From positions 67,523,217 to 67,587,216 of the forward strand of contig NC_081554.1 of NCBI RefSeq assembly GCF_963082655.1: a DNA stretch of 64,000 nucleotides. The letters are read 5' to 3'. The notes below the pieces were generated by a model. That model made no database searches. It worked only from the letters and a program-made list of their open reading frames with translations, and was not told the origin of the DNA. How positions within the stretch are numbered: the first letter of the stretch is position 1; the number at the start of each line of letters is the position of its first letter. Positions 5,931 to 63,120 of this stretch are shown here, piece after piece. The translations under genes were made by a program, and so were the position numbers. The stretch comes from Stomoxys calcitrans. Taxonomy: Eukaryota; Arthropoda; Insecta; Diptera; Muscidae.

Positions 5931-5944
5931 TTATATAAAATATT

Positions 5945-6288
<344 letters not shown>

Positions 6289-6298
6289 TATGTATGTT

Positions 6299-6889: not shown

Positions 6890-7660
6890 ATCAGACAATA
6901 AATCCGCTTTTTATGGGATTTTGACCCTAAATTGCAACATCGGTCTATATGGCAGCTATATCTATATAGTCTGATCTGGATCATATTTGGATCGGATGTC
7001 AAGAGGCTTAAAACAACTCATTATTTCAAATTTCAACGAAATCGGCTATTAAATTAAGTTTAAGGGCTTCAGACCCTTGATCAGCATATCGGTCTATATG
7101 GCAGCTATATCCTAATATCTTCCGATCTTAGCCATATTTGAATCGGGAGTCTTAAAACAACTCTCTGATTAAAATTTGAGCGAAATTGGGTTATTTATTA
7201 TAAGTCTGTTATGGGCTTCAGACCTTCAGCGATCGACAGATCGCTCTATATGACAGGGCTGTCACGAGAAGCTATATTTGGGTTGGATATCAGGAGGCTT
7301 AAAATAACTCACTGTTTAAAATTTCAGAGGAATCGGGTAATAAATAAAGCTTTTATGAGTTTCAGAACCCAGAGCCATATTTCAGCGTAATCGGGTAATA
7401 AAGCTTTTTATGCCCTTTATCGGCAGATTGGTCTATATGGCAGCAATATCCAAATATGGTCCGATCTGAACCATGTTTGAGTGGAATGTCGAGAGTCTTA
7501 CAATAACTAAATTTTTCAGCGCAATCGGGTAATAAATAAAGCTTTTATAGGCTTTAGACCCTTTACAGACTGATCGGTCTATATGGCAGCAATATCCAAA
7601 TATGGTCTGATTTGGCCTGTTCAAGAACTTGACTTTCGTGCAGCAAAAAGACCTATTAAT
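6890..7660. repeat. Tandem block of the 'cggtctatatggcagctatat' family
   Basis: Diverged repeats carry 'cggtctatatggcagctatat', 'ccgatct' and 'aaatttcagcgaaatcgg'. The units fall roughly 120-160 bp apart. The same family forms blocks at 10310-11350, 32080-32560, 33720-34690, 36420-36960, 38880-40140 and 40140-41115. It is non-coding. Confidence 0.75.
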
Positions 7661-10309: not shown

Positions 10310-11350
10310 AGAAAACAAGAAATCAAGATCCTAGATCGGTTTATATGCCAGCTATACAAGGTTATGTCCAGATTTGCGCCAAACTTAGCACTGTTATTGT
10401 AAGTCATAACAATTGCGCCCTCTAGCGGCTCAAGAATCAAGATCCAAGATCGGTTTAGATGGCAGCTATAACAGGTTATGAACCGATTTGAATTATACTT
10501 AGCACAGTTGTTGGAAATGATACCAAAACATCACGTGCAAAATTACACCCAAATCGGAAAAGAATTGCGCCTCCTAAGAGCTGAATAAGTCCAGACCCCA
10601 GATCGGTTTATATGGCAGCTACATCAGATTATGAACCGATTTGAACCAAACTTAAGGTTATAAACCGATTTGAATTATACTTAGCTCAGTTGCTGGGAAT
10701 CATAACAAAAAACCTCATGTAAATTTTCAGCCATATCGGATGAGAATTGCGCCCTCTAGCGGCTCAAGAATCAAGATCCAAGATCGGTTTAGATGGCAGC
10801 TATAACAGGTTATGAACCGATTTGAATTATACTTAGCACAGTTGTTGGAAATGATACCAAAACATCACGTGCAAAATTACAGCCAAATCGGAAAAGAATT
10901 GCGCCCCCTAAGAGCTGAATAAGTCCAGACCCCAGATCGGTTTATATCGCAGCTATATCAGGTTATGAACCGATTTGAACCATACTTAGCATAGTGGTGG
11001 GAAGTGATAACAAAACACCACGTGCAAAATCTTAGTCAAATCGCATGAGAATTGCGCCCTCTAGAGGCTCAAGAAGTCAAGACCCAAGATCGGTTTATAT
11101 GGTAGCTATATCAAAACTAGGAACAATTTGGCCCATTTACAATCCCAATTTCAAGTGAATAGCTTTACTCCTTCGAAAGTTAGCGTGCTTTCGACAGACA
11201 GACGGACGGATATGGCTAGATCGACTTAAAATGACATGACGATCAAGAATATATGTACTTTATGGGGTCTTAGACGCATATTTCGAGGTGTTACAAACAT
11301 AATTATGAAATTAGTATACCCCCATCCTATGGTGAAGGGTATAAAAATAT
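10310..11350. repeat. Tandem repeat block (about 180-bp unit family)
   Basis: At least five diverged copies of a unit with 'agatcggtttatatggcagctat', 'aggttatgaaccgatttgaa', 'cttagcacagttgttggaa' and 'gagaattgcgccctctagaggctc'. The segment at about 10440-10600 is repeated nearly exactly at 10785-10945. The block ends in 'atatgtactttatggggtct' and 'cccccatcctatggtgaagggtataaaa', an end also found inverted near 32070-32160. Confidence 0.85.
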
Positions 11351-17654: not shown

Positions 17655-17900
17655 CAACAATTTCAAAGAAAACGGACTATCCTCAGATTCAGGGCCAATT
17701 TCGCGCCTACGGCCCGTCTACATAGTGCCCAACATCTGTGGCCCACCTTCGTCTTCCTCGTGAACAGGCATATTTCAGTCTTCTCTGGGTAAACATTGAG
17801 ACCTCTGGGTCTAGCCCAGTCATATGCCATATGCCAGACCCTTTCGGCCCTTCTGCATAGCTCGTTCGGATCCTTACCCCTTAGAAGTATTATAACATCG
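17655..17900 (-). mobile_element. LINE copy 1, downstream (3') reverse-transcriptase segment, split from 23250-24640 by a Transib
   Basis: The minus-strand frame carries 'ILLRGKDPNELCRRAERVW' and 'GLNVYPEKTEICLF', the sequence expected just after the YADD motif of an RT. The upstream half of the same RT lies at 23250-24640 on the same strand. The two halves are separated exactly by the Transib element and its 5-bp target duplication. A related degenerate segment is at 52490-52680 (minus). Confidence 0.85.
17896..17900. repeat. Target-site duplication CATCG, left
   Basis: The five bases 'catcg' immediately before the CACAGTG terminus are repeated at 23250-23254 immediately after the right terminus. 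Five-bp target duplications are the hallmark of Transib/RAG transposition. Confidence 0.93.
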
Positions 17901-19331
17901 CACAGTGGGCCAAATGGCAAAAAAATTGGAAATAAGTCTACAACTTTTTATCTGTTGATTTTAGCCATACAAAATGTTCTAGACATTTGTAGAGGAGGAC
18001 ATAGGCTTTCAGAAAAGTGCTGTTGTTGGTCCATATCTTTAATACAGGGTGAGCTACAGGGTGTGAAAGTTGACCACTTTTGACTTCTCCAAGCTTCTGG
18101 GGGCCATAACTTTTGATCTACTCAACCGATTTACATGATTTAGGACTCTAGAGAAAGAGCTTGACAAGATCTAAAAAACTTATGCATAAAGTACCATGCC
18201 ATCGTGTACTGTTAAGGAGTTATGAATTGTTTAATTTTAAAATATGAAAATTTGGCCTTGGTTTTTTTCAGTGTTTTTTTAATAACTCCGTCAATTTTAA
18301 AGCTATAAACTTCATACTTCACACAAATTATGCCAGCATATGTGTGCATAAAATACAAAAGGAATCACGTGAATATCTTTGGCGGTTTAAAAATGGCATC
18401 GTTTTCAATATGAAAAATATTTTTTTTGTCAAAAAATTGCAAAATTTTTCAAAAAAGATACTCCCATTTCCTTTAAGTTTTCGCAAACTTTGGCCGTCAA
18501 AGCATTATCATTTCTTTCCATTTTCACAAAGTCGAGGTATTAAGAAAAGTTTTAAGTGCTAATTTGGCTAATTTCGATATCAAACAACACCGTTATCTTA
18601 AGACCAAAATGGCCAATTTTTTTACTAAACTTCAAAAGTTTCTCACTGGAAAAAAAGTTCCACGGGGATTTTTTCGCATTTTTTGAACTTAAATGAAAGC
18701 TTAAAATGTTCCCAACATTTTAAGGTATGTCTCGCCATATCCTAGCCATAAATGAGATCGTAGCGATCAAAATACTGAAAAAAGTCAATTTTCAAGTAGT
18801 GCTATATTCATTGCTAAAAAACAAGTATTACGTCACATTTTATTGCAAAGATGTTAAATAAACTTTTATTTGGTAACACTTCTTCTACAAAACACAAAAA
18901 GAATCATGGAAATATCTCTATTCTATTCCATTTTATGGAACCGGCAATAAAAAAGTCAATTTTTCAAAAAAGTCGAATTTCCCAAATTTTGTTTTTGTTG
19001 TCCTAATTGCACATGACACACTATAGCCATATTTACGCAACATACCTTATCGTAAAGGAAATTTTCATACCTTTCCAACGATGTATACAACATTTCTCAA
19101 CTCGGATTCTATCTACTCTAAAATTCATTTACACTTCATTAAACTCTATATAAAAATGTCTATTTGTGAAATGGAACCTTATATGGGGCCTACACTAAAA
19201 CATTGATAGATTTGCCCAGGGTTTACAATACAAATGTGTTAGAATAAAAAAAGGTCTCCTGCCAAAGTTTAAAAAAATTGGAATAAAAATATGTGTTTTA
19301 GAGCGAAAACACTTCGCATCGGCGTGCGTTT
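17901..19331 (+). repeat. Left terminal inverted repeat of the Transib element, 1,431 bp
   Basis: Begins CACAGTGGGCCAAATGG and ends 'cggcgtgcgttt' at 19331, where homology to the reversed right end stops. Mismatches to the right arm that I saw: one in 'ttcgcattttttgaac' (about 18684) and one in 'gtatacaacatt' (about 19087). It contains a 72-codon open frame (18344-18562) that is duplicated in the other arm and has no recognisable features. Confidence 0.93.
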
Positions 19332-19727
19332 GTATAGTACCTACATCTATTTTTAATGTAAGCTGATGATTTTTGAATAAAAAGTAACCTAGAAATATAC
19401 CTGCATATATATATATATTTGTGTTAAGATTTGATGCAGACAAATGTTACCTGTTTCGCTATGTCGAATTCCCAGGAAATCCACCGTATCAATGAATGTG
19501 AAAAAACCTACCCATAAAAAATTCATTGTCATTTTTTTTAACCAAATTCGAGTCCAGGTAAATAATTATAGAAGAGTAAGTAAAAAGAGGCACTTTGGAC
19601 CCCTTTTTACGATTGCGTCTGATACCTGAAATGGGTCATTAATTGTGAATATATTGCATAAATATTTGAACAAAATCCAAATTTTCTTCATTATATTTTG
19701 TAGAGGCGTAAAGGACATTTATAAGTT

Positions 19728-21770
19728 ATGGAAGTCATACTGAAGTATTCCACTCTTTCGAAAATTGTATGGGACATCAAAAATGATTCCAAATCATACA
19801 CGGAGTCATTTAAGGAACTTGTTTACACTTTGGACCACATATATGGAATAAGGCTAAATAAAGACGCTTTAGACAAACTTGAAAAATTCTACAAATCATT
19901 TGAGAGAAGGTTGCCAGAATGTTCATTCGCAAAAATCAAGTTTTTCAAAATGTATGAGAAGTGGCTGAAATCGGATCTACTTATTGAAATTAAACCGCTG
20001 ATTCCCGGCCGGCCTAGCAAAGCATACGACGAAGTTACGGAGAAAACCAAAAAGAAAAAACAAGAGGAACTATTGGCGGCACATCCGCCAAATTTAATAA
20101 AAGATACGTTCAAAACAGCATTGTTAAAAACACAACCAAAAAATGTTGGACGAATTGTCGATGTTTTACCATTAGCATCTCCGAAAAGGGTAAAGAGAAT
20201 GGTAGAAAGTATTCCAACTCCAAAATCGACTACAGAATTCACGGAGGAAGATGCACTGGCCCTGATTTTGAACCTAGGCCTCTCAAGAAACAAATACTCA
20301 ACAATGAGGAAGGCTCTTCGTGAAAAAGGATGGGGTTGTTTACCCTCAAAACATAAATTGTACAACACCAGGACGAAAATGGTGCCATCAAATATATACG
20401 TGGACGAATTAAAAGCAAGAGTGAAACTTGCTGATCTTGTTGAAAATACAGCTGTTAGAATTATTTCTAATTTTACTGAAGAACAGTTGAACACATGTAA
20501 TAATTCCGAAGTGGTTTTGATCAGCAAATGGGGTTGTGATGGATCATCTGGATTTTCCGAATATAAGCAACAAACAGAAATAGATACCAACTTCGCATCA
20601 ATTTTCATGGCATCATTAGTACCATTGAGAATGAGATTGTACAAGGACCAATCTTCATCATCGAAAGAAAATGCATTTCAAGATATATGGATAAATAGAA
20701 CACCTGGGTCAAAATATTTATGTCGCCCAATTCGGTTTGAGTATACAAAGGAAGACCGGAACACAACACGATCTTTGGTGAACGAAATAAAGGAAGAAAT
20801 TGCTGCATTACCCATGATTGTTATAAACCAATTGGGAAGAAATATAAAAGTTTCGTTTCAACTACAACTCACTATGATCGATGGAAAGGTGGCAAACGCA
20901 TTAACTGGCGTTATGTCCAATTGGAGATGCAATATTTGTGGCAAGAAGAATGGGCAATTCGAGGACAAGTCTGATGAAAATTTAGTAAACGAAAATGCGC
21001 TCAATTTCGGTATTTCGCCCCTGCACTGTAGAATTCGATTCATGGAGTATTGTTTGCATTTATCGTATGACCTTAAATATCGGACTAGCCCTGGAAACCG
21101 CGATGTCTCTGCTAGAAACAACCAAGATCTTCACAAAATGAGGCAGGAAGAGAAGAATCGAATCCAGTTGGAGTTTAAACAAAAGGGACTTATAATAGAT
21201 AAACCTCTTTACGGATACGGAAGCACAAATGATGGCAACTCGGCAAGGCGGTTTTTTGAGGACCCCGTATCGACATCTAAAATAACCGGTCTTGATGAAC
21301 ACTTGCTAAGACGATTCAAAGTGATTTTGGCTGTAATCAATAGCAAAAAGATGATAAATTCAACCAAATTTGAAGCTTATAGTAATGACACAAAAAACAT
21401 TTTATCTGATTTATATTCGTGGAAAGCTTTAACACCGACAGTACATAAAGTCTTACATCATGGCAAGGAAATTGTGGAATACAACATACTTCCGTTAGGA
21501 GAACTTACAGAAGAAGCTCAGGAATCCCGTAATAGAGATGTTAAACAGTTCCGGCTTTTCAATACCCGAAAGAGCACCAAATTTAACCAAAATTATGATT
21601 TACTTCAATATTTATTGTTATCGTCTGATCCGGTACTATACAGCATCAGAACTAAATGGCTACCAAAAATATGTGACGATATAGATAAGGACGATCCCGA
21701 TGCCATTCAAATTAAAGAGCTTTTAAATTTTGATACCTTAGATTATTTGGTAGAGAATAAAATCAAATAA
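19728..21770 (+). CDS. Transib/RAG1-like DDE transposase, 680 aa, intact
   Basis: Catalyses cut-and-paste transposition of the flanking element; homologous to the RAG1 recombinase core. Starts at ATG 19728 and ends at TAA 21770 with no interruption. The catalytic triad is present. Asp271 lies in 'KWGCDGSSG' (RAG1 D600 position). Asp385 lies in 'LTMIDGK' (D708 position), followed by the zinc cysteines Cys401-x2-Cys404. Glu599 lies in 'LTEEAQESRNRD' (E962 position). The zinc histidines H573 and H578 in 'VHKVLHHG' match RAG1 H937/H942. After the Glu, 'KQFRLFNTRKSTKF' continues the RAG1/Transib C-terminal pattern. Residues about 94-115 are basic (GRPSKAY...KKKKQ), perhaps DNA-binding. A 'ttgtag' acceptor-like site at 19703 and a 'cag|gtaaat' donor at 19557 suggest a 5'-UTR intron; joining them gives a stop before the ATG, so they do not extend the protein. 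The family assignment is secure from motifs; activity is inferred. Confidence 0.93.
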   Translation: MEVILKYSTLSKIVWDIKNDSKSYTESFKELVYTLDHIYGIRLNKDALDKLEKFYKSFERRLPECSFAKIKFFKMYEKWLKSDLLIEIKPLIPGRPSKAYDEVTEKTKKKKQEELLAAHPPNLIKDTFKTALLKTQPKNVGRIVDVLPLASPKRVKRMVESIPTPKSTTEFTEEDALALILNLGLSRNKYSTMRKALREKGWGCLPSKHKLYNTRTKMVPSNIYVDELKARVKLADLVENTAVRIISNFTEEQLNTCNNSEVVLISKWGCDGSSGFSEYKQQTEIDTNFASIFMASLVPLRMRLYKDQSSSSKENAFQDIWINRTPGSKYLCRPIRFEYTKEDRNTTRSLVNEIKEEIAALPMIVINQLGRNIKVSFQLQLTMIDGKVANALTGVMSNWRCNICGKKNGQFEDKSDENLVNENALNFGISPLHCRIRFMEYCLHLSYDLKYRTSPGNRDVSARNNQDLHKMRQEEKNRIQLEFKQKGLIIDKPLYGYGSTNDGNSARRFFEDPVSTSKITGLDEHLLRRFKVILAVINSKKMINSTKFEAYSNDTKNILSDLYSWKALTPTVHKVLHHGKEIVEYNILPLGELTEEAQESRNRDVKQFRLFNTRKSTKFNQNYDLLQYLLLSSDPVLYSIRTKWLPKICDDIDKDDPDAIQIKELLNFDTLDYLVENKIK

Positions 21771-21818
21771 TACAAAACTAAAATGCTTTTTTATTTTGGG
21801 AGTAGCTAATATACATAT

Positions 21819-23249
21819 AAACGCACGCCGATGCGAAGTGTTTTCGCTCTAAAACACATATTTTTATTCCAATTTTTTTAAACTTTGGCAGGAGACCTTT
21901 TTTTATTCTAACACATTTGTATTGTAAACCCTGGGCAAATCTATCAATGTTTTAGTGTAGGCCCCATATAAGGTTCCATTTCACAAATAGACATTTTTAT
22001 ATAGAGTTTAATGAAGTGTAAATGAATTTTAGAGTAGATAGAATCCGAGTTGAGAAATGTTTTATACATCGTTGGAAAGGTATGAAAATTTCCTTTACGA
22101 TAAGGTATGTTGCGTAAATATGGCTATAGTGTGTCATGTGCAATTAGGACAACAAAAACAAAATTTGGGAAATTCGACTTTTTTGAAAAATTGACTTTTT
22201 TATTGCCGGTTCCATAAAATGGAATAGAATAGAGATATTTCCATGATTCTTTTTGTGTTTTGTAGAAGAAGTGTTACCAAATAAAAGTTTATTTAACATC
22301 TTTGCAATAAAATGTGACGTAATACTTGTTTTTTAGCAATGAATATAGCACTACTTGAAAATTGACTTTTTTCAGTATTTTGATCGCTACGATCTCATTT
22401 ATGGCTAGGATATGGCGAGACATACCTTAAAATGTTGGGAACATTTTAAGCTTTCATTTAAGTTCAAAAAAAGCGAAAAAATCCCCGTGGAACTTTTTTT
22501 CCAGTGAGAAACTTTTGAAGTTTAGTAAAAAAATTGGCCATTTTGGTCTTAAGATAACGGTGTTGTTTGATATCGAAATTAGCCAAATTAGCACTTAAAA
22601 CTTTTCTTAATACCTCGACTTTGTGAAAATGGAAAGAAATGATAATGCTTTGACGGCCAAAGTTTGCGAAAACTTAAAGGAAATGGGAGTATCTTTTTTG
22701 AAAAATTTTGCAATTTTTTGACAAAAAAAATATTTTTCATATTGAAAACGATGCCATTTTTAAACCGCCAAAGATATTCACGTGATTCCTTTTGTATTTT
22801 ATGCACACATATGCTGGCATAATTTGTGTGAAGTATGAAGTTTATAGCTTTAAAATTGACGGAGTTATTAAAAAAACACTGAAAAAAACCAAGGCCAAAT
22901 TTTCATATTTTAAAATTAAACAATTCATAACTCCTTAACAGTACACGATGGCATGGTACTTTATGCATAAGTTTTTTAGATCTTGTCAAGCTCTTTCTCT
23001 AGAGTCCTAAATCATGTAAATCGGTTGAGTAGATCAAAAGTTATGGCCCCCAGAAGCTTGGAGAAGTCAAAAGTGGTCAACTTTCACACCCTGTAGCTCA
23101 CCCTGTATTAAAGATATGGACCAACAACAGCACTTTTCTGAAAGCCTATGTCCTCCTCTACAAATGTCTAGAACATTTTGTATGGCTAAAATCAACAGAT
23201 AAAAAGTTGTAGACTTATTTCCAATTTTTTTGCCATTTGGCCCACTGTG
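21819..23249 (-). repeat. Right terminal inverted repeat of the Transib element, 1,431 bp
   Basis: The reverse complement of 17901-19331 with two substitutions seen. It ends in CACTGTG at 23243-23249, that is CACAGTG on the minus strand. Confidence 0.93.
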
Positions 23250-23254
23250 CATCG
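23250..23254. repeat. Target-site duplication CATCG, right
   Basis: Matches 17896-17900. In the minus-strand LINE frame these bases fall in the codons of the YADD motif. Confidence 0.93.
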
Positions 23255-28899: not shown

Positions 28900-31489
<2,590 letters not shown>

Positions 31490-33721: not shown

Positions 33722-36700
33722 TATATTCATGATCTTCTTGACATTTAGAGTCGATTTAGCCTGCCTGCCGAAAGCACGCCAACTTTCGAAGGAGTGAAGC
33801 TAGGCGCTTGAAATAATACAGAAATACTTCCTATTAGTGTAGATCGGTTGGGATTGTTAAAGGGCACTATCGGCCCATGTTTTGATATAGCTGCCATATA
33901 AACCGATATTAGATCTTGACTTCTTGAGCCTCTAGAGGGCGCAATTCTTATCCAATTTGGTTGAAATTTCGCATGAGATGTTCTCTTCTGACTTCCAATA
34001 ACTGTGTCAAGAATGGTCCAAATCGGTTCATAACCTGATATAGCTGCCATATTAACAAATCTCGGATCTTAACTTCTTTAGCCTCTAGAGGGCGCAATTC
34101 GGATCTGACTCGGCTGAAATGGTATGAGGTATTTTGTTTTGACTTCAATACCTATGCTAAGAATGGTCTAAATCGACGCATTACCTTCATTGACTTCTTG
34201 AGCCTCTAGAGGGCGCAATTCTTATCCAATTTGGTTGAAATTTCTCATGAGATGTTCCGTTCTGACTTCTAATAAATGTGTCAAGAATGGTCAAAATGGG
34301 TTCATAAGATATAGCTGCCATATTAACAAATCTTGGATTTTGACTTATTAAGCCTCTAGAGGGCGCAATTCTTATCCAACTTGGTTGAAATTTCGCATGA
34401 GGTGTTCTGTTCGGACTTGCGATAACTGTGTCAAGAATGGTCAAAATCGGTTCATAACCTGATATAGCTGCCATATTAACAAATCTCGGATCTTGACTTA
34501 TTAAGCCTCTAGAGGGCGCAATTCTTATCCAACTTAGCTGAAATTTTGGATGAGGTATTTTGTTTTGACTTCAATACCTAATCTTAAAATGGTCTAAATC
34601 GACTCATTGCCAATTTCGGAACTTGACTTCTTGAGCTCTTGAAGGACACAATTCCTTTTCGATTTGGCGAAGGTTTTGAACAAGATACCAAATTAGATCT
34701 ATCTCCCATATATGTACATTGAAGGCAGTATGAAATAAGTCCCCAATACAAAAAATTCCCAAACTGGAAATGAAATCCCAAATGTAGAGCTTAAATCATA
34801 ATGAAATGAGACCCCAAAATTAAAAATGATATAAAGCCCAACGAAATGAAAAACACCACAAACTAAAATGAAAGAAGAACCCAAAATTTGGGCCATTAAA
34901 ATTTTTCAAACTGTGCTGCTCCTCTGTTTTGTTGTTAATTTTTGTAAAACGAAATAAAGCCCCAAAAATTACTTTTGGGGGGCTTTGTTTCATATCCAAA
35001 TTTGCGGCTCTAAGCGGATTTGACTATAGCTATGTCCGTCTGTCCACGTATGCTTTCTGTACTGATATATATCCGTCTGTGTCATTTTTTGGAATCAAGT
35101 TGGATATGGTATTTGTTACTTAATGCGTTAAAAAGAAATACTTTTTGTATGTTTGGGGTACTCTAATGTACATATTTGCATATTTACTCCCCTATGCACA
35201 TTTGTGGCCACAATATTTGCTCCTATATGTATCTTAGCGGTAGTACTATGTCTACTTGGTAATGCCTCATTATCTACCAGTTTAGTTTCCTATCCAACTT
35301 TACTTTCAAAGCTGAAGGCCATCATGAGACATATGTTAGTATATCTGCCAATAACGCTGAACGCCGGAGTTTGAATCCTGGTGAGACTATTAAATACAAA
35401 TTTCTAAGGTTGCGACATCGCCTTTTTAATGTGGTAACATTTCTAATGTCTTCGGCTATATTAAACTTCTGTACCAACAGATGTTGCACAGCCACACTCT
35501 GTTTGGACTGGTCTAAAATAAAATGTGGATACTGCTAATTGGTATCAGAGAAGTTTCACCGCTGATCCATAATGGGATGCTTGCGGGCAAATTTGCATTT
35601 TATATTTTTCAATTATTTTGTAAAATTTTAAAATTTGTATAAGTTTATTGTAATTGTTGGACTAAAATATTTGAAGCTTCAAATTGTTAGATTTAGCCAG
35701 AAAATGAATACATATTTAGATATCTATATGATGAAATGTTATACTTTTTTTTATTGATCAGTCATTACAATTGGAGAAAAAAGAGATTAAATTATTTTTT
35801 CATATTAAAGCTATAAAGTTCTTCATTAATACAATAATATCAGTAATGTAAAATGTAAGAGATTTAATTTAGAGTACATATTTGCTTTTACCAATTTTGT
35901 TTTTTTTTATAATATTTTTTTTTTCTTTAATAAAAATGCTATTAAGTGTCTATTTGAGATAATTAACAAGTGATCTTGGTTTTAGATATAATGTATAAAT
36001 CTATATAAATATGAATAACGATTGTACCAATATATATATATATACGTTTGGCGTATGTAAAATACTTTTCTGTTTCTTTTAGAAAACAATTAATTTTATA
36101 ATATCATTGTGTAATACTTTAACTTAACTGCTTATATCATGAATACATGTTTGTATTTTTTGAAAGAGATTTGAGATTTGTTATATAAGATGTGGACAAA
36201 ATTATTAGATTTTTTTTTCAATAATATAACTAATTTTTTGATATCATTAGTTGATTAATTTGCTTATATTAATAAGTTGAGTCGCTTAACAGTGGGACAA
36301 AATAGAGAAAATTTGGATAAGCAAGTCAAATCTATATGGCTGGGACGGGAGAACTTCTCTCAAAACCATTTGATGAGAATACCCCAGAACCAATCCCTAA
36401 TGACTAGAGATGGGTTTCTACGATAAAGGAGAATTTATCATACGATTTGGATGAAATTTAAAGTAAAGATACTCTACACAATAATCAATATCGAGAGATC
36501 GGTCAATATGGCTGCTATATCCAAATATGGTCCGATCTGGACGATATTCAACAAAAAGGTTTAGACGGGTACCAAAACGCACTGTTTTAAATTTCATCCA
36601 AATCGGATGAAAAATGCTCCTTTTATGGGCTCAATTCTTTATATCGGGAGATCGGTCTATATGGCAGCTATATCCCAATATGGCCCGATCTAGACGATAT

Positions 36701-39700
36701 TCAACAAAAAGACTTGAAGGGTTACCAAAACGCACTGTTTTAAATTTCATCCAAATCGGATGAAAAATGCTCCTTTTATGGGCTCAATACTCTATATCGG
36801 GAGATCGGTCTATATGGCAGCTATATCCAAATAGGGCCCAATCTGGACCACATTTGACAGGCATGGGTAGGGGTCTACCAGAACAAACTGTGCGAAATAT
36901 GAAACCATCAAAAATTGTTTCATATAAATAAATACCCAGCTTTTGGGTATAAATGGGTAAATACCCGGGTATTTACCCAATTTACCGGGTACATACCCAA
37001 AAGGTAAATACCTCTATATGGGTAATTACCCATCGCCCATCTCTTCTAATGACGGTATAGAATTTCTACCACATAGTCAGAATTAGGTCAGCATAGAATT
37101 ACATGAGAGTAAGAGCCGAGATAACGGAGAGCATGTTAAGGTTTTGATGAAAACGCATTTTCCACGGAGATACCGGAATCATAGAATAATGAGGTTGATC
37201 GAAGGCTTATCATTACGGAATGTATGGTAAAGGAAGCGTTGAGGAGCTTCCAACCTTTTAAGTCACACGGACCTGATGGAATATTTCCGTCATTACTACA
37301 GAAGGAGACTGACTATTTGGCACTCCAACTGGCCACTATTTCCACAGCTTGATTAGAACTTACGTATATTCCGAAAGCCTGGCAGGAGACAAGGGTGGTA
37401 ATTATAACCAAGCCTGGCAAGGCAGGTTATGCGACACCAAAGGCGTAAAGACCTATAAGCCTTACGTCCTTTCTACTCAAAACCTTGGAACGTATTGTGG
37501 ATACCAAGGAGACAAGGGTGGTAATTATAACCAAACCCGGCAAGGCAGGTTATGCGACACCAAAGGCGTAGAGACCTATAAGCCTTACGTCCTGTCTGCT
37601 CAAAACCTTGGAACGTATTGTGAATACCAAGATAAGGAGTAGGACATTCAGCTATCTGCTCAGATACAAACAGCATGCCTATATCAAGGGAAGGTCGGAG
37701 GAGACTGCCTGGCACGAGTTTGTGAATACAATGGAAGAATCCTTCGATGTCAAGACGTACACATTGGCCGTATGCATTGACATCGAGGGAATGTTTAACA
37801 GTGCGCGGATCGACACACTGATCCAATCCTCAGACCAGTATAAACGATATGCTAAGGATCAGGTGGATAAATTGTGGGTCCCATGATATAAATAAAGGAT
37901 GATTGTTTAGCTATTATCTTTTCGGCAACACTGGTTTAAACAGCTCACGCACGTTTCGTGTTTTGTTTCACTGTCAAACATCTTTAGTTTGGTCTATATT
38001 TTAGCCATGAATCGTCTTACAAACGAACAACGCTTGCAAAGTATTGAATTTTATTATCAAAGTGCGTGCTCTGTTAAGGAAGTTCATCGCGCGCTTCTTC
38101 CGTTTTACAACGAAGCTCATTTTTGGCTCAACGAGTACGTAAATAACTAGAATTGTCGATTTTGGAGTGAAGATGAGCCAGAAGCATTGCTAGAGCTACC
38201 AATGCATCTAGAAAAAGTCACAGATTGGTGCGGTTTATGGGCTGGTGAAATCATTGGACCGTACTTCTTCAAAGATGATGCGAATCGTAAAGTAACTGTG
38301 AATGGTATCCAACTTTTTGTGCCTAAAATGCAAGAGCTTGATTTGCATGACATGTGGTTGCAACAAGCCGATGCCACATGTCACACAGCACGCGTAAAAT
38401 GAGAGGCGAGTTCGGTGAACATTTAATTTCACGTTTGGGACCGGTCAACTCGGCGCTTAGATCGTGCGATTTAACACCTTTAGACTATGTTTTGTGGGGC
38501 TATGTTAAAGCTAATATCTATACAGACAAGCTCGCTTCAATTGATGAATGGGAAGACAACATTAAAGCATTTATTGGTGAGATACCGGCCGAAATGTTGG
38601 CAAGAGTATGCCAAAATGGACATTTTACGGCCACCATAAATAGCCTATTACGAATGCTGGCTGAGCAGTGATTTGAACCCGTCTGCTATGCAGACGATGT
38701 TATTTCTAAGAGGTAATGATCCAAATAAGCTATGCAGAAGCGCCGAAATTGTCTTGCAGATGGCACACGACTAGGCTAGACCTAAGGGTCTAAATTTTAA
38801 CCCAGAGAAGACTAAAATCTGCCTGTTCATGAGAAAGACGAAAGTGGGCCAGTTTGATGCACAATGTTTCCTCAATAAAACGATTCTAACATCTGAGCCT
38901 CTAGAGGGAGCAGTTCTCTTCCGATTTGATTGAAATTTTGCACGTTGTGTTTCGGTATCACTTCTAACAACTGTGCTAAGTATGGTTCAAATCGGTCCAT
39001 GTTTTGATATAGCTACCATATAAACCGATCTTGGGTCTTGACGTCTCGAGCCTCTAGAGCGCGCAATTCTCGTCCGATTTGATTGACATTTTGCACGTTG
39101 TGTTTGAACCATACTTAACAACTGTGCTAAGTATGGTTTAAATTGGTTCATAACTTGATATAGCTGCCATATAAACCGATTTTGGGCCTTGACTTATTCT
39201 TCTTATCCGATTTGGCTGTAATTTGCACGTGGTGTTTTAGTATCATTTCAACAACTGTGGCGCAAATCGATACATAACCTGATATAGCTGCCATATAAAC
39301 CGATCTGGATCTTGACTTCTTGAGCCGCTAGAGGGCGCAATTCTCATCCGATTTGGCAGAAATTTTGCATGAGGTGTTCTGTTATGACTTCCAATAACTG
39401 TGCTGGGTATGGCGCAAATCGGTACTTAAACTGATATAGCTGTCATATAAACCAATCTGGGATCTTGACTTCTTGAGCCTCTAGAGGGGGCAATTCTCAT
39501 CCGATTTGGAGGAAATTCTGTACAACGGCCTCTAGAGGGCGTATTCCTCTTCTGATTTAGCTGACATTTTGCATGAGGTGTTTTGTTATAACTGCCAACA
39601 ACTGTGCTAAGTATGTCGCAAATCGGTACATAACTTGATATAGCTGCCATATTAACCGATCTGGGATCTTGACTTCTTGAGCCTCTAGAGGGCGCAATTC

Positions 39701-42700
39701 CCATCCGATTTGGAGGAAATTTTGTACAACGGCTTCTCCCATGACCTCCAACATACGTCTCCAATATGGCCTGAATCGATCTATAGCTTGATACAGCTCC
39801 CATATAAACATATCTCCCGATTTTGCATCTTGAGCCCCTACAAGACGTAATTCTTATCCGAATGAACTGAAATATTACACAATGACTTGTACAATGTTCA
39901 GAATTCAATTCATTTATGGTCCGAAGCGGACTATAAATTGATATCGTTCCAATAGCATAACTGTTCTTATTCATTATTCTTTATTTGCCTAAAAAAGAGA
40001 TACCCCGCAAAGAACGCGACAAATGCGATCCATGGTGGAGGGTGTATAAGATTCGGCCCGACCGAACTTAGCACGCTCTTACTTGCTATACCCTACACCA
40101 CCACTGTGGTACAGGGTATTAAAAGTTTGTGCATTTGTTTGCAACGCTAAGAAAGAGAAGAGCTAGACCCATTGATAAGTATACCGATCGACTCAGAATC
40201 ACTTTCTGATTCGATTTAGCCATGTCCGTCTGTGAGTCCATGTTTTCTTGTTATCAAAGTGCAGGTCGCATTTGTTGTCCAACATATCACTTTTTTGAAG
40301 ACGCTAATGATTTTGGTAAAAATCGGTTTAGATTTAGATATAGCTCCCATATATATGTATCGCCCGATTTGCACTTAAATCGCCGTAGTAACTACAGTTT
40401 TCAACCGATCTTCACAAAATTTGGCATGGCTTGTTTTGTTAATGGTCTTAACATATGTGCAAGATTTCATCAAAATCGGTTCCAATTTAGATATAACTCC
40501 CATATATATTTATCGCCCGATTTGCATTTAAATGACCATAGTTACTACAATTTTCAACCGATCTGCTCAAAATTTGACATGGCTTGTTTTGTTACTGATC
40601 TTAACATATGTGCAAATTTCATCAAAATCGGTTCAGAATTAGATATAACTCCCATATATATGTATCGCCCGATTTTTACTTAAATGGCCGTAGTACCTAC
40701 AGTTTTCAAGCGATCTGTACAAAATTTGGCACGAATTGTTTTGTTTCTGATTTTAACATATGTGCAAGATTTTATCAAAATCGGTTAAGATTAAGATATG
40801 GCTCCCATATATATGAATTTCCCGATTTGCACTTAAATGGCCGTAGTTACTACAATTTTTAACCAATCTGCACAAAATTTGGCACGGATAGCTTTGTTGC
40901 TGTTTGCGTTCATCAATATCGGTTCAAATTTGGACGTAGCACCCATACATATTTATCGCCGGATGTGCACTTATATGGCCGTTGTAACAACAATTTTCAA
41001 ACGATATAGCTCTCATATACATACGAATTTATATATTGCCCGAATTTATAATTGTAGGGTAGGTGTAGGGTATTTTATAGTCGGCTCCGCCCGACTTTTG
41101 CCCATCCTTACTGGTTTTTAAATAAAATGGTTATCCTATTTTTTCTTTAAAAATTTGTCCCGCTGTAGCGCAGAGATTTTTTTCTTTCTCTATTCTATAA
41201 CTTTGTTCAAAAAGTAATTGGCAATCTGATTTTCTATAATTCTAAAGTAATGTTGTTTTTGTATTTGGCATTGTTTTATGATTTATAATCATATACATAC
41301 TGCTGATAGGGCATCATAGTCCAGGCGATCCAATATAACACTGGCAGAACCTTGAAACTTGATTGGTTCACTCTGGGCCTTGCTTTTTTTTAACAAATTG
41401 TGTTATTCAAAAATTCATAACAGCTTAGATGACCATCGGCAGCTGCGGCAGCAGCTTCATTACGTGTTTTAACGAAATTACTCACCCAATGTGTGGTGAG
41501 ATCCAAATATTTGGTTTTCTTGCCAGGATTATAGTCGAGAAAGCCTGCCTTGGGTATGACCTCCTCAATTTGACTGCCGTCGGGCCAATTATTATAGCTG
41601 GCCACATTGATAAAGCCAACATGATTAAGTATGGCAGTTCGCCAGGCAACACCATAGTACTGTGCAATAGAAAAGACGAAATCAAATAGGACAAACCAAA
41701 CAAAAAAAAACAAGGCAGGATTTTGATTGAACTCTTACAGTCGGAACTGGTTGGATTATAACAACAACATTGTTGAGATAAGATTAAAATTCAAAAAATC
41801 TAATTGTGTTTCATTTTATGTGATTCCTTCAAGCAAACTGGCTTTCTAATGAATTGAATTATGAGAGCTTATGAAATGCCACAAACGACTGAATAGTATT
41901 GCATTTTGTTGACAAAAATTATTGAACACTAACAGGCGTTGTTCATTTGCCAGGTTCGACTGTAATAATATTTGCTATAGTTCATTTTTCTATATATCAT
42001 GCGTTGTATATGCTCACCCTTCCATTACTGCGATGCCTTTGTATATCTCCATGTCTTGGAAATTTATTGCGTTCTGCAAATCCTGGACCCACTGTTGGCA
42101 CAAACAACATTTTGTATGTTAAGGCAAATGATTTTAGGTAAGACCAATTCTTCCAAGTGCTGGCGAATGTGGCTCCATTGCTTGGCAATTTACTATAGAA
42201 ACCGTCTAAACAAAGCCGCTTCATATAATCGGCATGATTTTTAAGTCTAAGAAAAGTGGAGAATGTACAACAAAATAAGTTGTTGCTTTATAATATCACA
42301 AGAAATTCAATTCAAACCAGTTTGCAGGAAGGGCTAAAAAGTAGCACACATTTGGTGTAAAAATAAAATGAAACACTAGTATTTGGTTCTTTGTAAACCA
42401 ACGCACTAAATAACTATTGAAGTCAATTTTCATAGTACATTTGATTTTTCTAATGTCTACCTGATTCTTCAGTGTTCAGTCTCAATTAAGCAACTTTATA
42501 TCACTGACTGACACAACTTAGATCACTGAGATAAATTTTCTTTGATGTTTTCATTGGGCTTTAAACACAGGAATTAGATGTGGTAGTCGACCTTGATCGA
42601 TCTTTGCAATACAGTCCGCAGACATTCCAATTACAATCAAGAGAATACAACACTGTTAGGAAAAAAATTAAAATTAAATTTTAACAAAAATTTACACTTC

Positions 42701-62814: not shown

Positions 62815-63120
62815 AATTTACCCATGGACATTCCATTAAGGAACTGGGGGCAAACTTCTCACATATCAATGAGTGCTGTCCAATTCAATTTTAAGCTCAA
62901 TGATAAGGGACTTTCTTTTTATAGGCGACTCCGAACGGCATGCCGCAGAGCGACACTTCTTTGGGAAGAAGTTTTTACATGGCAAAGTACCTCACAAATG
63001 TCGCCAGCATTAAGAGGGGATAACCACCACTGAAAATTTTTCTGATGTTCCCGCCAGGATTCGAACCCAGGCGTTCAGCGTCATAGGCGGACATGCTAAC
63101 CACTGCGCTACGGTGGCTTT
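62815..63120 (-). mobile_element. tRNA-derived SINE, minus orientation, full-length head
   Basis: Contains 'gggataaccaccactgaaaatttttctgatgttcccgccaggattcgaacccagg', then 'gacatgctaaccactgcgctacggtggc', that is a clean B-box (gggttcgaatcctgg) and A-box-like head on minus. The poly-T/TA tract at 62780-62807 precedes its tail. Confidence 0.85.

What the first reader, a model, noticed from the sequence alone, without database searches (positions are those of the whole stretch)
17901..23249. A complete Transib/RAG-type transposon with CACAGTG ends and 1,431-bp terminal inverted repeats
Seen: both ends start with CACAGTG, the consensus heptamer of V(D)J recombination signals. A perfect CATCG duplication flanks the element, and a single intact transposase with RAG1 motifs sits between the arms. 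Known: Transib elements make 5-bp duplications, end in CACWRTG-type heptamers, and have terminal repeats that I know as tens of bp long. Arms of 1.43 kb each (54% of the element) would make this a foldback-like Transib variant, which I have not seen described.
Basis: partly seen in the sequence, partly recalled or inferred. Interest (0 to 1): 0.9.

Follow-up and report, generated by a model that had tools for sequence, protein, structure and literature searches.

The report
Transib transposon with kilobase-long inverted arms
This is a complete, recently active relative of the transposon that gave rise to our antibody-shuffling enzyme RAG1, present in many near-identical copies in the stable fly genome, with unusually long mirror-image ends that appear to keep copying each other.

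Summary
The element at 17901-23249 is 5,349 bp, with CACAGTG at both ends, CATCG duplications, 1,431-bp arms (2 mismatches) and one 680-aa Transib transposase. It is not an assembly oddity: of 37 copies examined, all have both ends, 36 have identical 5-bp duplications, and 35 of the 36 without an insertion are 5,347-5,354 bp. The genome probably holds several hundred copies (extrapolated).

Two results go beyond the finding. (1) The arms evolve in concert: arms within a copy differ by 1.29 of 1,431 bases, against about 3 between copies, and 8 of 36 minor alleles sit in both arms of one copy. This points to arm-to-arm conversion. (2) Two other Transib families in this genome have only 14- and 12-bp ends; one of two worn copies of a relative from the same transposase clade is flanked by inverted repeats of at least 0.3 kb.

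Hztransib is already said in print to have "long TIRs", so this is a new variant of a known kind.

The parts
17901..23249 (+). whole Transib element, 5,349 bp
   Evidence: same length in 28 of 36 copies
17896..17900 (.). left target-site duplication CATCG
23250..23254 (.). right target-site duplication CATCG
17901..17907 (+). left terminal heptamer CACAGTG (RSS-like)
23243..23249 (-). right terminal heptamer CACAGTG
17901..19331 (+). left arm (terminal inverted repeat), 1,431 bp
21819..23249 (-). right arm (terminal inverted repeat), 1,431 bp, 2 mismatches to the left arm
19332..19727 (+). unique spacer between left arm and ORF; its last 388 bp were the DNA probe
19728..21770 (+). transposase ORF, 680 aa; residues D271, D385, E599 fall on the HzTransib DDE triad
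21771..21818 (+). 48 bp between stop codon and right arm; an AATAAA at 21756 overlaps the last codons
23319..24485 (-). reverse-transcriptase ORF of the non-LTR retrotransposon that holds the insertion
38631..38851 (-). related LINE copy with the uninterrupted target (empty site)

Best explanation
Autonomous cut-and-paste Transib transposon of Stomoxys calcitrans, very recently amplified. Shown: two CACAGTG ends, 5-bp target duplications mostly of the form CRNYG, one intact RAG1-like DDE transposase with a predicted fold like HzTransib, and many near-identical copies. Inferred from HzTransib and RAG biochemistry: the transposase pairs the two heptamer ends, nicks at CAC, makes hairpins on the flanking DNA, excises the element and joins it to a target with a 5-bp stagger. 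Shown: the two 1.43-kb arms of a copy share variants that distinguish copies. Inferred: the inverted arms serve as repair templates for each other when breaks at the element, or in replication, are healed; conversion copies one arm onto the other, keeps both transposon ends identical, and arms are at times exchanged between copies. How the arms first grew to 1.4 kb is not shown; capture of internal sequence by arm extension during break repair, as proposed for Galileo, is the likeliest route.
For: HzTransib match E 6.8e-84 and fold match E 2.0e-31; triad D271/D385/E599. 37 of 37 copies with both ends, 36 of 37 with identical 5-bp duplications, 29 of 36 identical duplications CRNYG against 0.95% of window positions. 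Empty site. 65 listed places with 100% identical protein and 40 with 100% identical spacer, both lists capped. Arms: within-copy difference 1.29 against 3.11 (left-left) and 2.92 (left-right) between copies; total 45, lowest of 10,000 shuffles 77; 5 of 6 minor alleles with three or more carriers in both arms, 3 of 30 single-carrier alleles in both; all four allele combinations at two pairs of sites. Galileo is a precedent for arm extension and proposed conversion (PMC3573991, passages and part of its discussion).
Against: No transposition was observed and no reads or other strains were available. Pfam RAG1 is matched just below its cut-off (24.1 against 25 bits). One allele with three carriers (position 520) is in one arm only, and 7 of 35 copies have arms of different haplotype, so homogenisation is incomplete. 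Two of the eight both-arm alleles (596, 1180) are CpG G>A and could have recurred. The copies were chosen for an intact ORF, all but one from contig C1.
Confidence: 0.82

Rival explanations
1. The long arms, or their near identity, are an artefact of assembly or polishing: a palindromic chimera, or reads from one arm correcting the other.
For: Inverted repeats of this size are hard for short reads, and raw reads were not available. Cross-mapping between arms could copy alleles from one to the other.
Against: 37 of 37 copies at different sites have both ends and 36 of 37 identical duplications; 27 single-carrier alleles remain in one arm only, which full cross-correction would have removed. Families B and C in the same assembly have short ends.
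Confidence: 0.05
2. No conversion: the arms arose once, the family spread from several master copies, and shared alleles reflect recurrent mutation or several separate arm-duplication events.
For: Few haplotypes dominate, as with a small number of masters; 596 and 1180 are CpG changes that could recur.
Against: Six of the eight both-arm alleles are not CpG, and three of the eight are private to one copy yet in both arms (287, 1024, 1354). A new arm duplication would have to happen in the same frame each time. All four allele combinations at 165/380 and 596/1180 need exchange or recurrence.
Confidence: 0.1
3. The long arms are kept by selection for a job in transposition or expression (extra transposase sites, a promoter in each arm), not as a by-product of repair.
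For: Galileo's long arms hold several THAP binding sites (PMC3688188, abstract); Mutator arms hold binding sites and promoters (PMC3310237, abstract start in the listing). A divergent relative may share the form.
Against: No internal heptamer. The best internal look-alike of the terminus is reached by 37 of 1,000 Markov sequences and equally by the middle of the element. Families B and C spread with 12-14-bp ends.
Confidence: 0.3

Closest known systems
Hztransib (Helicoverpa zea, Transib)
   Same: Same transposase family, 5-bp duplication (GCTCG), described as having long TIRs (PMC1852546, passages)
   Different: 3,518 bp and a 489-aa product, so arms can be at most about 1.02 kb if they exclude the ORF (arithmetic); exact length is in a figure not seen. 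Protein 35% identical by structure alignment. The solved chain lacks a counterpart of residues 1-164 in the sequence match.
Transib families B and C of the same genome (found here)
   Same: Transib transposase, CAC heptamer (C: CACAGTG), 5-bp duplications
   Different: 3,237 and 3,053 bp with 14- and 12-bp terminal repeats; a different transposase clade
Galileo (P superfamily, Drosophila)
   Same: Cut-and-paste element with long arms, arm extension, chimeric copies and proposed conversion (PMC3573991, PMC4168063, passages)
   Different: Unrelated transposase with a THAP domain; arms with internal tandem repeats in some groups; in D. mojavensis its longest arms are in copies without the transposase ORF
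RAG-like transposons (ProtoRAG, RAGL)
   Same: RAG1-like catalytic core, CAC-type ends, 5-bp duplications (PMC7204232, passages; fold match to BbRAGL 6b40)
   Different: No RAG2-like gene seen: the one other ORF of 200 aa or more in the element is antisense inside the transposase; ends are symmetric and long
TransibSU and Transib MITEs of Helicoverpa
   Same: Transib-type ends and 5-bp duplications
   Different: 13-bp repeats (PMC4411706, passages) and 13-57-bp repeats (PMC9033116, passages)

Membership tests
Transib superfamily | Transposase homologous to Transib/RAG1 core | tested here: met
   HzTransib E 6.8e-84; Foldseek E 2.0e-31; Pfam RAG1 24.1 bits, just below the 25-bit cut-off
Transib superfamily | DDE catalytic triad | tested here: met
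   D271 and E599 invariant, D385 in at least 90% of 18 sequences; aligned with D126, D225, E436 of HzTransib (numbers from PMC6941560; alignment, offset of 17 by my arithmetic)
Transib superfamily | Termini beginning with a CACWRTG-type heptamer | tested here: met
   CACAGTG at both ends in 37 of 37 copies
Transib superfamily | 5-bp target-site duplication | tested here: met
   36 of 37 identical, one with a single mismatch
Transib superfamily | Short terminal repeats (usual, not defining) | tested here: not met
   1,431 bp here; 14 and 12 bp in families B and C
RAG-like (RAG1L-RAG2L) transposon | Convergent RAG2-like gene in the same element | tested here: not met
   No other ORF of 200 aa or more in the element but one antisense to the transposase; ORFs of 80 aa or more were listed, not searched one by one
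Foldback (FB-type) element | Long arms built of internal tandem repeats | tested here: not met
   Arms are long, but Tandem Repeats Finder gives one 17-bp x 2.2 run only (repeats are short)
Hztransib family | Nucleotide identity over the element | not testable with these tools
   Its DNA record was not available; proteins are far apart
A named Repbase/Dfam Transib family | Nucleotide identity to a catalogued consensus | not testable with these tools
   Neither library is available; besides itself the best listed proteins are 66% (84% coverage) and 58% (full length) identical

The most novel reading that the evidence does not exclude
A clade of Transib transposons carries kilobase inverted arms that act as mutual repair templates. 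Conversion between arms, and exchange between copies, keeps the two RSS-like ends identical for the life of the family. The form would be an inherited trait: seen in the young family A and in the old family D, absent from the short-ended families B and C of the same genome. RAG-type transposons would then have a symmetric, self-correcting alternative to the asymmetric ends that led to V(D)J signals.
Probability: 0.42. Interest if true: 0.68.

Novelty: new variant of a known kind. Interest (0 to 1): 0.6.

Why it matters
Few RAG-type transposons are known that look active today. This one has many intact, near-identical copies in a living, rearable fly, so excision and transposition can be tested directly. 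It sits beside two short-ended Transib families in the same genome, so the effect of arm length can be compared within one host. Concerted evolution of the arms is seen at sequence level in a RAG-type element, with a readable set of alleles for measuring conversion and exchange. Long inverted arms are also a known source of inversions (Galileo, PMC2775673, title and abstract start in the listing) and could make double-stranded RNA (inference), both testable in this host.

Tried and rejected
Internal extra binding sites: a 23-bp look-alike of the terminus near the inner end of the arm (19261-19283) is not clearly beyond chance (37 of 1,000 Markov sequences reach the score, and the middle of the element scores the same); dropped.

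Relatives in public DNA collections: viral contigs (8 stretches matched a pattern, none confirmed) and prokaryote genome contigs (19, none confirmed); no use.

Genome-wide count by the 36-base terminus did not complete, so the ratio of ends to ORFs (non-autonomous derivatives) is unknown.

Family D: the second D copy (L052) has no inverted repeat of its own in the fetched flanks (score 35, highest of 10 Markov controls 36). The first (L049) has one, 1942-2273 against 6896-7201, score 329 against 39, and a piece of another repeat lies beside its right outer part. Pieces of L049's left flank (1958-2941) match L052 inversely relative to the ORF at 79-94%. A separate repeat lying beside both copies is not excluded. 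I treat D's long arms as possible to likely, not shown; D's outer heptamers were not found.

Copies left out: L016 (insertion of about 1.7 kb in the left arm) altogether; L007 (66-bp deletion in the right arm) counted for ends and duplications, not for arm statistics. One search missed the ends of L004 and L005 because of changes close to the heptamer; one search includes them. Asymmetry of the 12/23 type was not looked for, since both ends are the same.

Papers: Kapitonov and Jurka 2005 is not held. The statement that I found no Transib with kilobase arms in print rests on (94 papers, 30 listed; 11; 0; 2; 36, 35 listed; 0, Stomoxys); only some of the listed papers were opened, as passages.

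Full report
What is in the window. The element runs from 17901 to 23249 (5,349 bp, 33% GC) between two CATCG duplications. Both ends begin CACAGTG and this heptamer occurs nowhere else in the element. The arms are 1,431 bp, gap-free, with 2 mismatches. Between them lie 396 bp of unique sequence, a 680-aa ORF (19728-21770) and 48 bp. The right arm starts 48 bp after the stop codon, and an AATAAA overlaps the last codons. A transcript ending there would not enter the right arm; this is inference, since no RNA data were available.

The insertion. The element interrupts a non-LTR retrotransposon. Leaving out the element and one duplication gives an open reverse-transcriptase frame of 141 codons across the junction. 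A related LINE copy at 38631-38851 has the uninterrupted target with one CATCG.

The transposase. The PDB sequence search gives HzTransib (6pqn and five more entries, E 6.8e-84) and then RAG1L and RAG1 weakly. Pfam's RAG1 model scores 24.1 bits, just under its 25-bit cut-off. A ColabFold model from 18 aligned sequences has mean pLDDT 81 and pTM 0.66. Its best Foldseek matches are HzTransib (6pqx, E 2.0e-31) and then RAG1. D271, D385 and E599 fall on the HzTransib triad. Besides the protein itself the best matches in the large protein set are 58% identical over the full length and 66% over 84% (178 matches, 120 listed), so no close relative outside this genome is recorded there.

The host. Protein P0054 is named Stomoxys calcitrans and lies on a contig of 271,964,629 bases, the length of contig C1 of the window's genome. 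The window's own host protein lies on a contig of 199,748,301, the length of C3, where the window lies. The genome has 1.07 Gb in 297 contigs.

Copy number. A protein search listed 65 places, all 100% identical over 680 aa and without stops, all between 0.33 and 140.8 Mb of C1. The list was cut by the tool: 65 were scored of 1,493 first-look candidates, and the window copy on C3 is not in it. A search with 388 bp of the unique spacer listed 40 places, all 100% identical, between 0.33 and 57.9 Mb of C1; 40 were scored of 792 candidates. At that density the genome would hold about 740 copies, near the number of candidates; this is extrapolation. Of those 40, 18 are in the list and 6 more show an open frame of 681 codons, so at least 24 of 40 have an intact frame; the rest were not examined. 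One search also lists places with 681-codon frames on C2, C3 and C4, and shorter or equal open frames on C4 and C5.

Structure of the copies. I examined 37: the window copy and 36 of the 65 places, the latter therefore chosen for an intact ORF and all from C1. All 37 have both ends. 36 of 37 have identical 5-bp duplications; L027 has CGTTG/CGTGG. Of the 36 without an insertion, 28 are exactly 5,349 bp, 35 are 5,347-5,354 bp, and L007 is 5,282 bp with a 66-bp deletion in the right arm. L016 has an insertion of about 1.7 kb in its left arm. The duplication fits CRNYG in 29 of the 35 identical pairs (29 of 36 with L016, AAACG), against 0.95% of positions in the window. For comparison, hopper and transib2 of D. 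melanogaster are reported with the target motif CCANTGG, transib2 earlier with CABHG (PMC3276498, passages).

Age. Left arms of different copies differ by 3.11 of 1,431 bases on average. With the Drosophila rate of 0.011 changes per site per Myr used in PMC3573991 (passage), that is about 0.1 Myr. This is an order of magnitude only, because conversion blurs it and the rate is borrowed.

Arms evolve in concert. In 35 aligned copies I compared left and right arm within each copy. They differ by 1.29 bases on average and are identical in 11 of 35. Different copies differ by 3.11 (left-left) and 2.92 (left-right). Dealing the right arms out among copies never gave a total as low as observed (45; lowest of 10,000 was 77). 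Of 36 minor alleles, 8 occur in both arms of at least one copy (positions 165, 287, 380, 518, 596, 1024, 1180, 1354). Among alleles with three or more carriers 5 of 6 are in both arms, the exception being position 520; among single-carrier alleles 3 of 30. So young changes mostly sit in one arm and older ones mostly in both. That is the mark of conversion between arms, or of an equivalent copying step. Two of the eight (596, 1180) are CpG G>A and could recur. All four allele combinations exist at 165/380 and at 596/1180, and 7 of 35 copies have arms of different haplotype at the five commonest sites, so exchange between copies is likely too. An earlier run on 25 copies gave the same picture (1.16 against 3.01 and 2.87; 0 of 10,000 shuffles).

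Controls in the same genome. A search with P0054 (74 of 1,342 candidates scored) found a second family B, 20 places at 100% over residues 1-523 and partial ones, and a third family C, 33 places 40-41% identical to B with stops inside the matched stretch. The fetched B copy is 3,237 bp with 14-bp terminal repeats (CACATTGGTTCAAG) and duplication CGGTG; the fetched C copy is 3,053 bp with CACAGTGTTGCC, 12 bp, and CGGCG. A second copy of each, 98-100% identical over the aligned pieces, has the same ends and perfect duplications (TGCCG, CGGCG). So short ends are found in two of two comparison families, and the 1.43-kb arms are special to family A and perhaps to D.

Family D. P0042 (48% identical to A) marks a degraded family. 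Its copy L049 is flanked by inverted repeats (1942-2273 and 6896-7201, 73% identity with gaps, score 329 against a highest control of 39). Pieces of L049's left flank match the flank of a second D copy, L052, inversely relative to the ORF over about 1 kb at 79-94%, but L052 keeps no inverted pair of its own. A tree of 24 transposases puts A and D in one clade of 11 (100/100), not as sisters, apart from B and C, C being a long and unsure branch. Long arms may therefore be a feature of this clade. Two worn copies are thin evidence; independent origin, or an unrelated repeat beside both copies, is not excluded.

Comparison with print. Hztransib is described as 3,518 bp with 'long TIRs' and a 489-aa product (PMC1852546, passages). 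The number is in a figure I did not see; by arithmetic it is at most about 1.02 kb if the arms exclude the ORF. TransibSU has 13-bp repeats (PMC4411706, passages), and Transib MITEs of Helicoverpa 13-57 bp (PMC9033116, passages). Galileo, an unrelated P-type element, is the best precedent for long arms with arm extension and proposed conversion (PMC3573991, passages and the first part of its discussion; PMC4168063, passages). I found no paper joining Transib with kilobase arms in the searches; most subscription papers and Repbase are not covered.

Verdict. The finding stands. The element is a member of Transib by each defining feature that I could test, a structural variant in arm length, and part of a recent burst.

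Noticed in passing
L047 2411-5647 and L050; L048 2957-6009 and L051 (genome contigs C1, C5): Two further Transib families, B (3,237 bp, CACATTG ends) and C (3,053 bp, CACAGTG ends), with near-identical second copies; B has 20 listed places at 100%.
   Followed up: partly
L049 1942-7201, L052: Degraded Transib family D in the same transposase clade as the window element; one copy is flanked by old inverted repeats.
   Followed up: partly
L016 about 852-2543: Insertion of about 1.7 kb in the left arm of one copy; the arm bases at the border are repeated on both sides over 9 positions, which would fit a 9-bp duplication by another element.
   Followed up: no
L027 element ends: The one copy with unlike duplications (CGTTG/CGTGG) also has arms of different haplotype (CATGA/CATAG), perhaps a hybrid of two copies.
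   Followed up: no
window transposase residues 94-99, in the N-terminal 165 aa: A GRPxKx[YF] motif, like an AT-hook or the GRPR of the RAG1 nonamer-binding domain (comparison from recall), present in 43 of 100 matched proteins of 590 aa or more; others have GAPxK or GRPxKxL. A candidate contact for the A-tract of the terminus.
   Followed up: partly
window 10655-11113, 33883-34576, 38895-40902: Arrays of about 150-bp units holding GAGCCTCTAGAGGGCGCAATTC-like sequence in several places and versions.
   Followed up: no
window 5932-6295: A TA dinucleotide run of 182 copies at 96% match.
   Followed up: no
window 63046-63117: ARAGORN calls a tRNA-His with anticodon ATG, an unusual anticodon for His; possibly a false or decayed gene.
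   Followed up: no
window 29867-31048: A host-like ORF that reads as a casein-kinase-1-type (tau-tubulin-kinase-like) protein kinase (name from recall, not searched).
   Followed up: no
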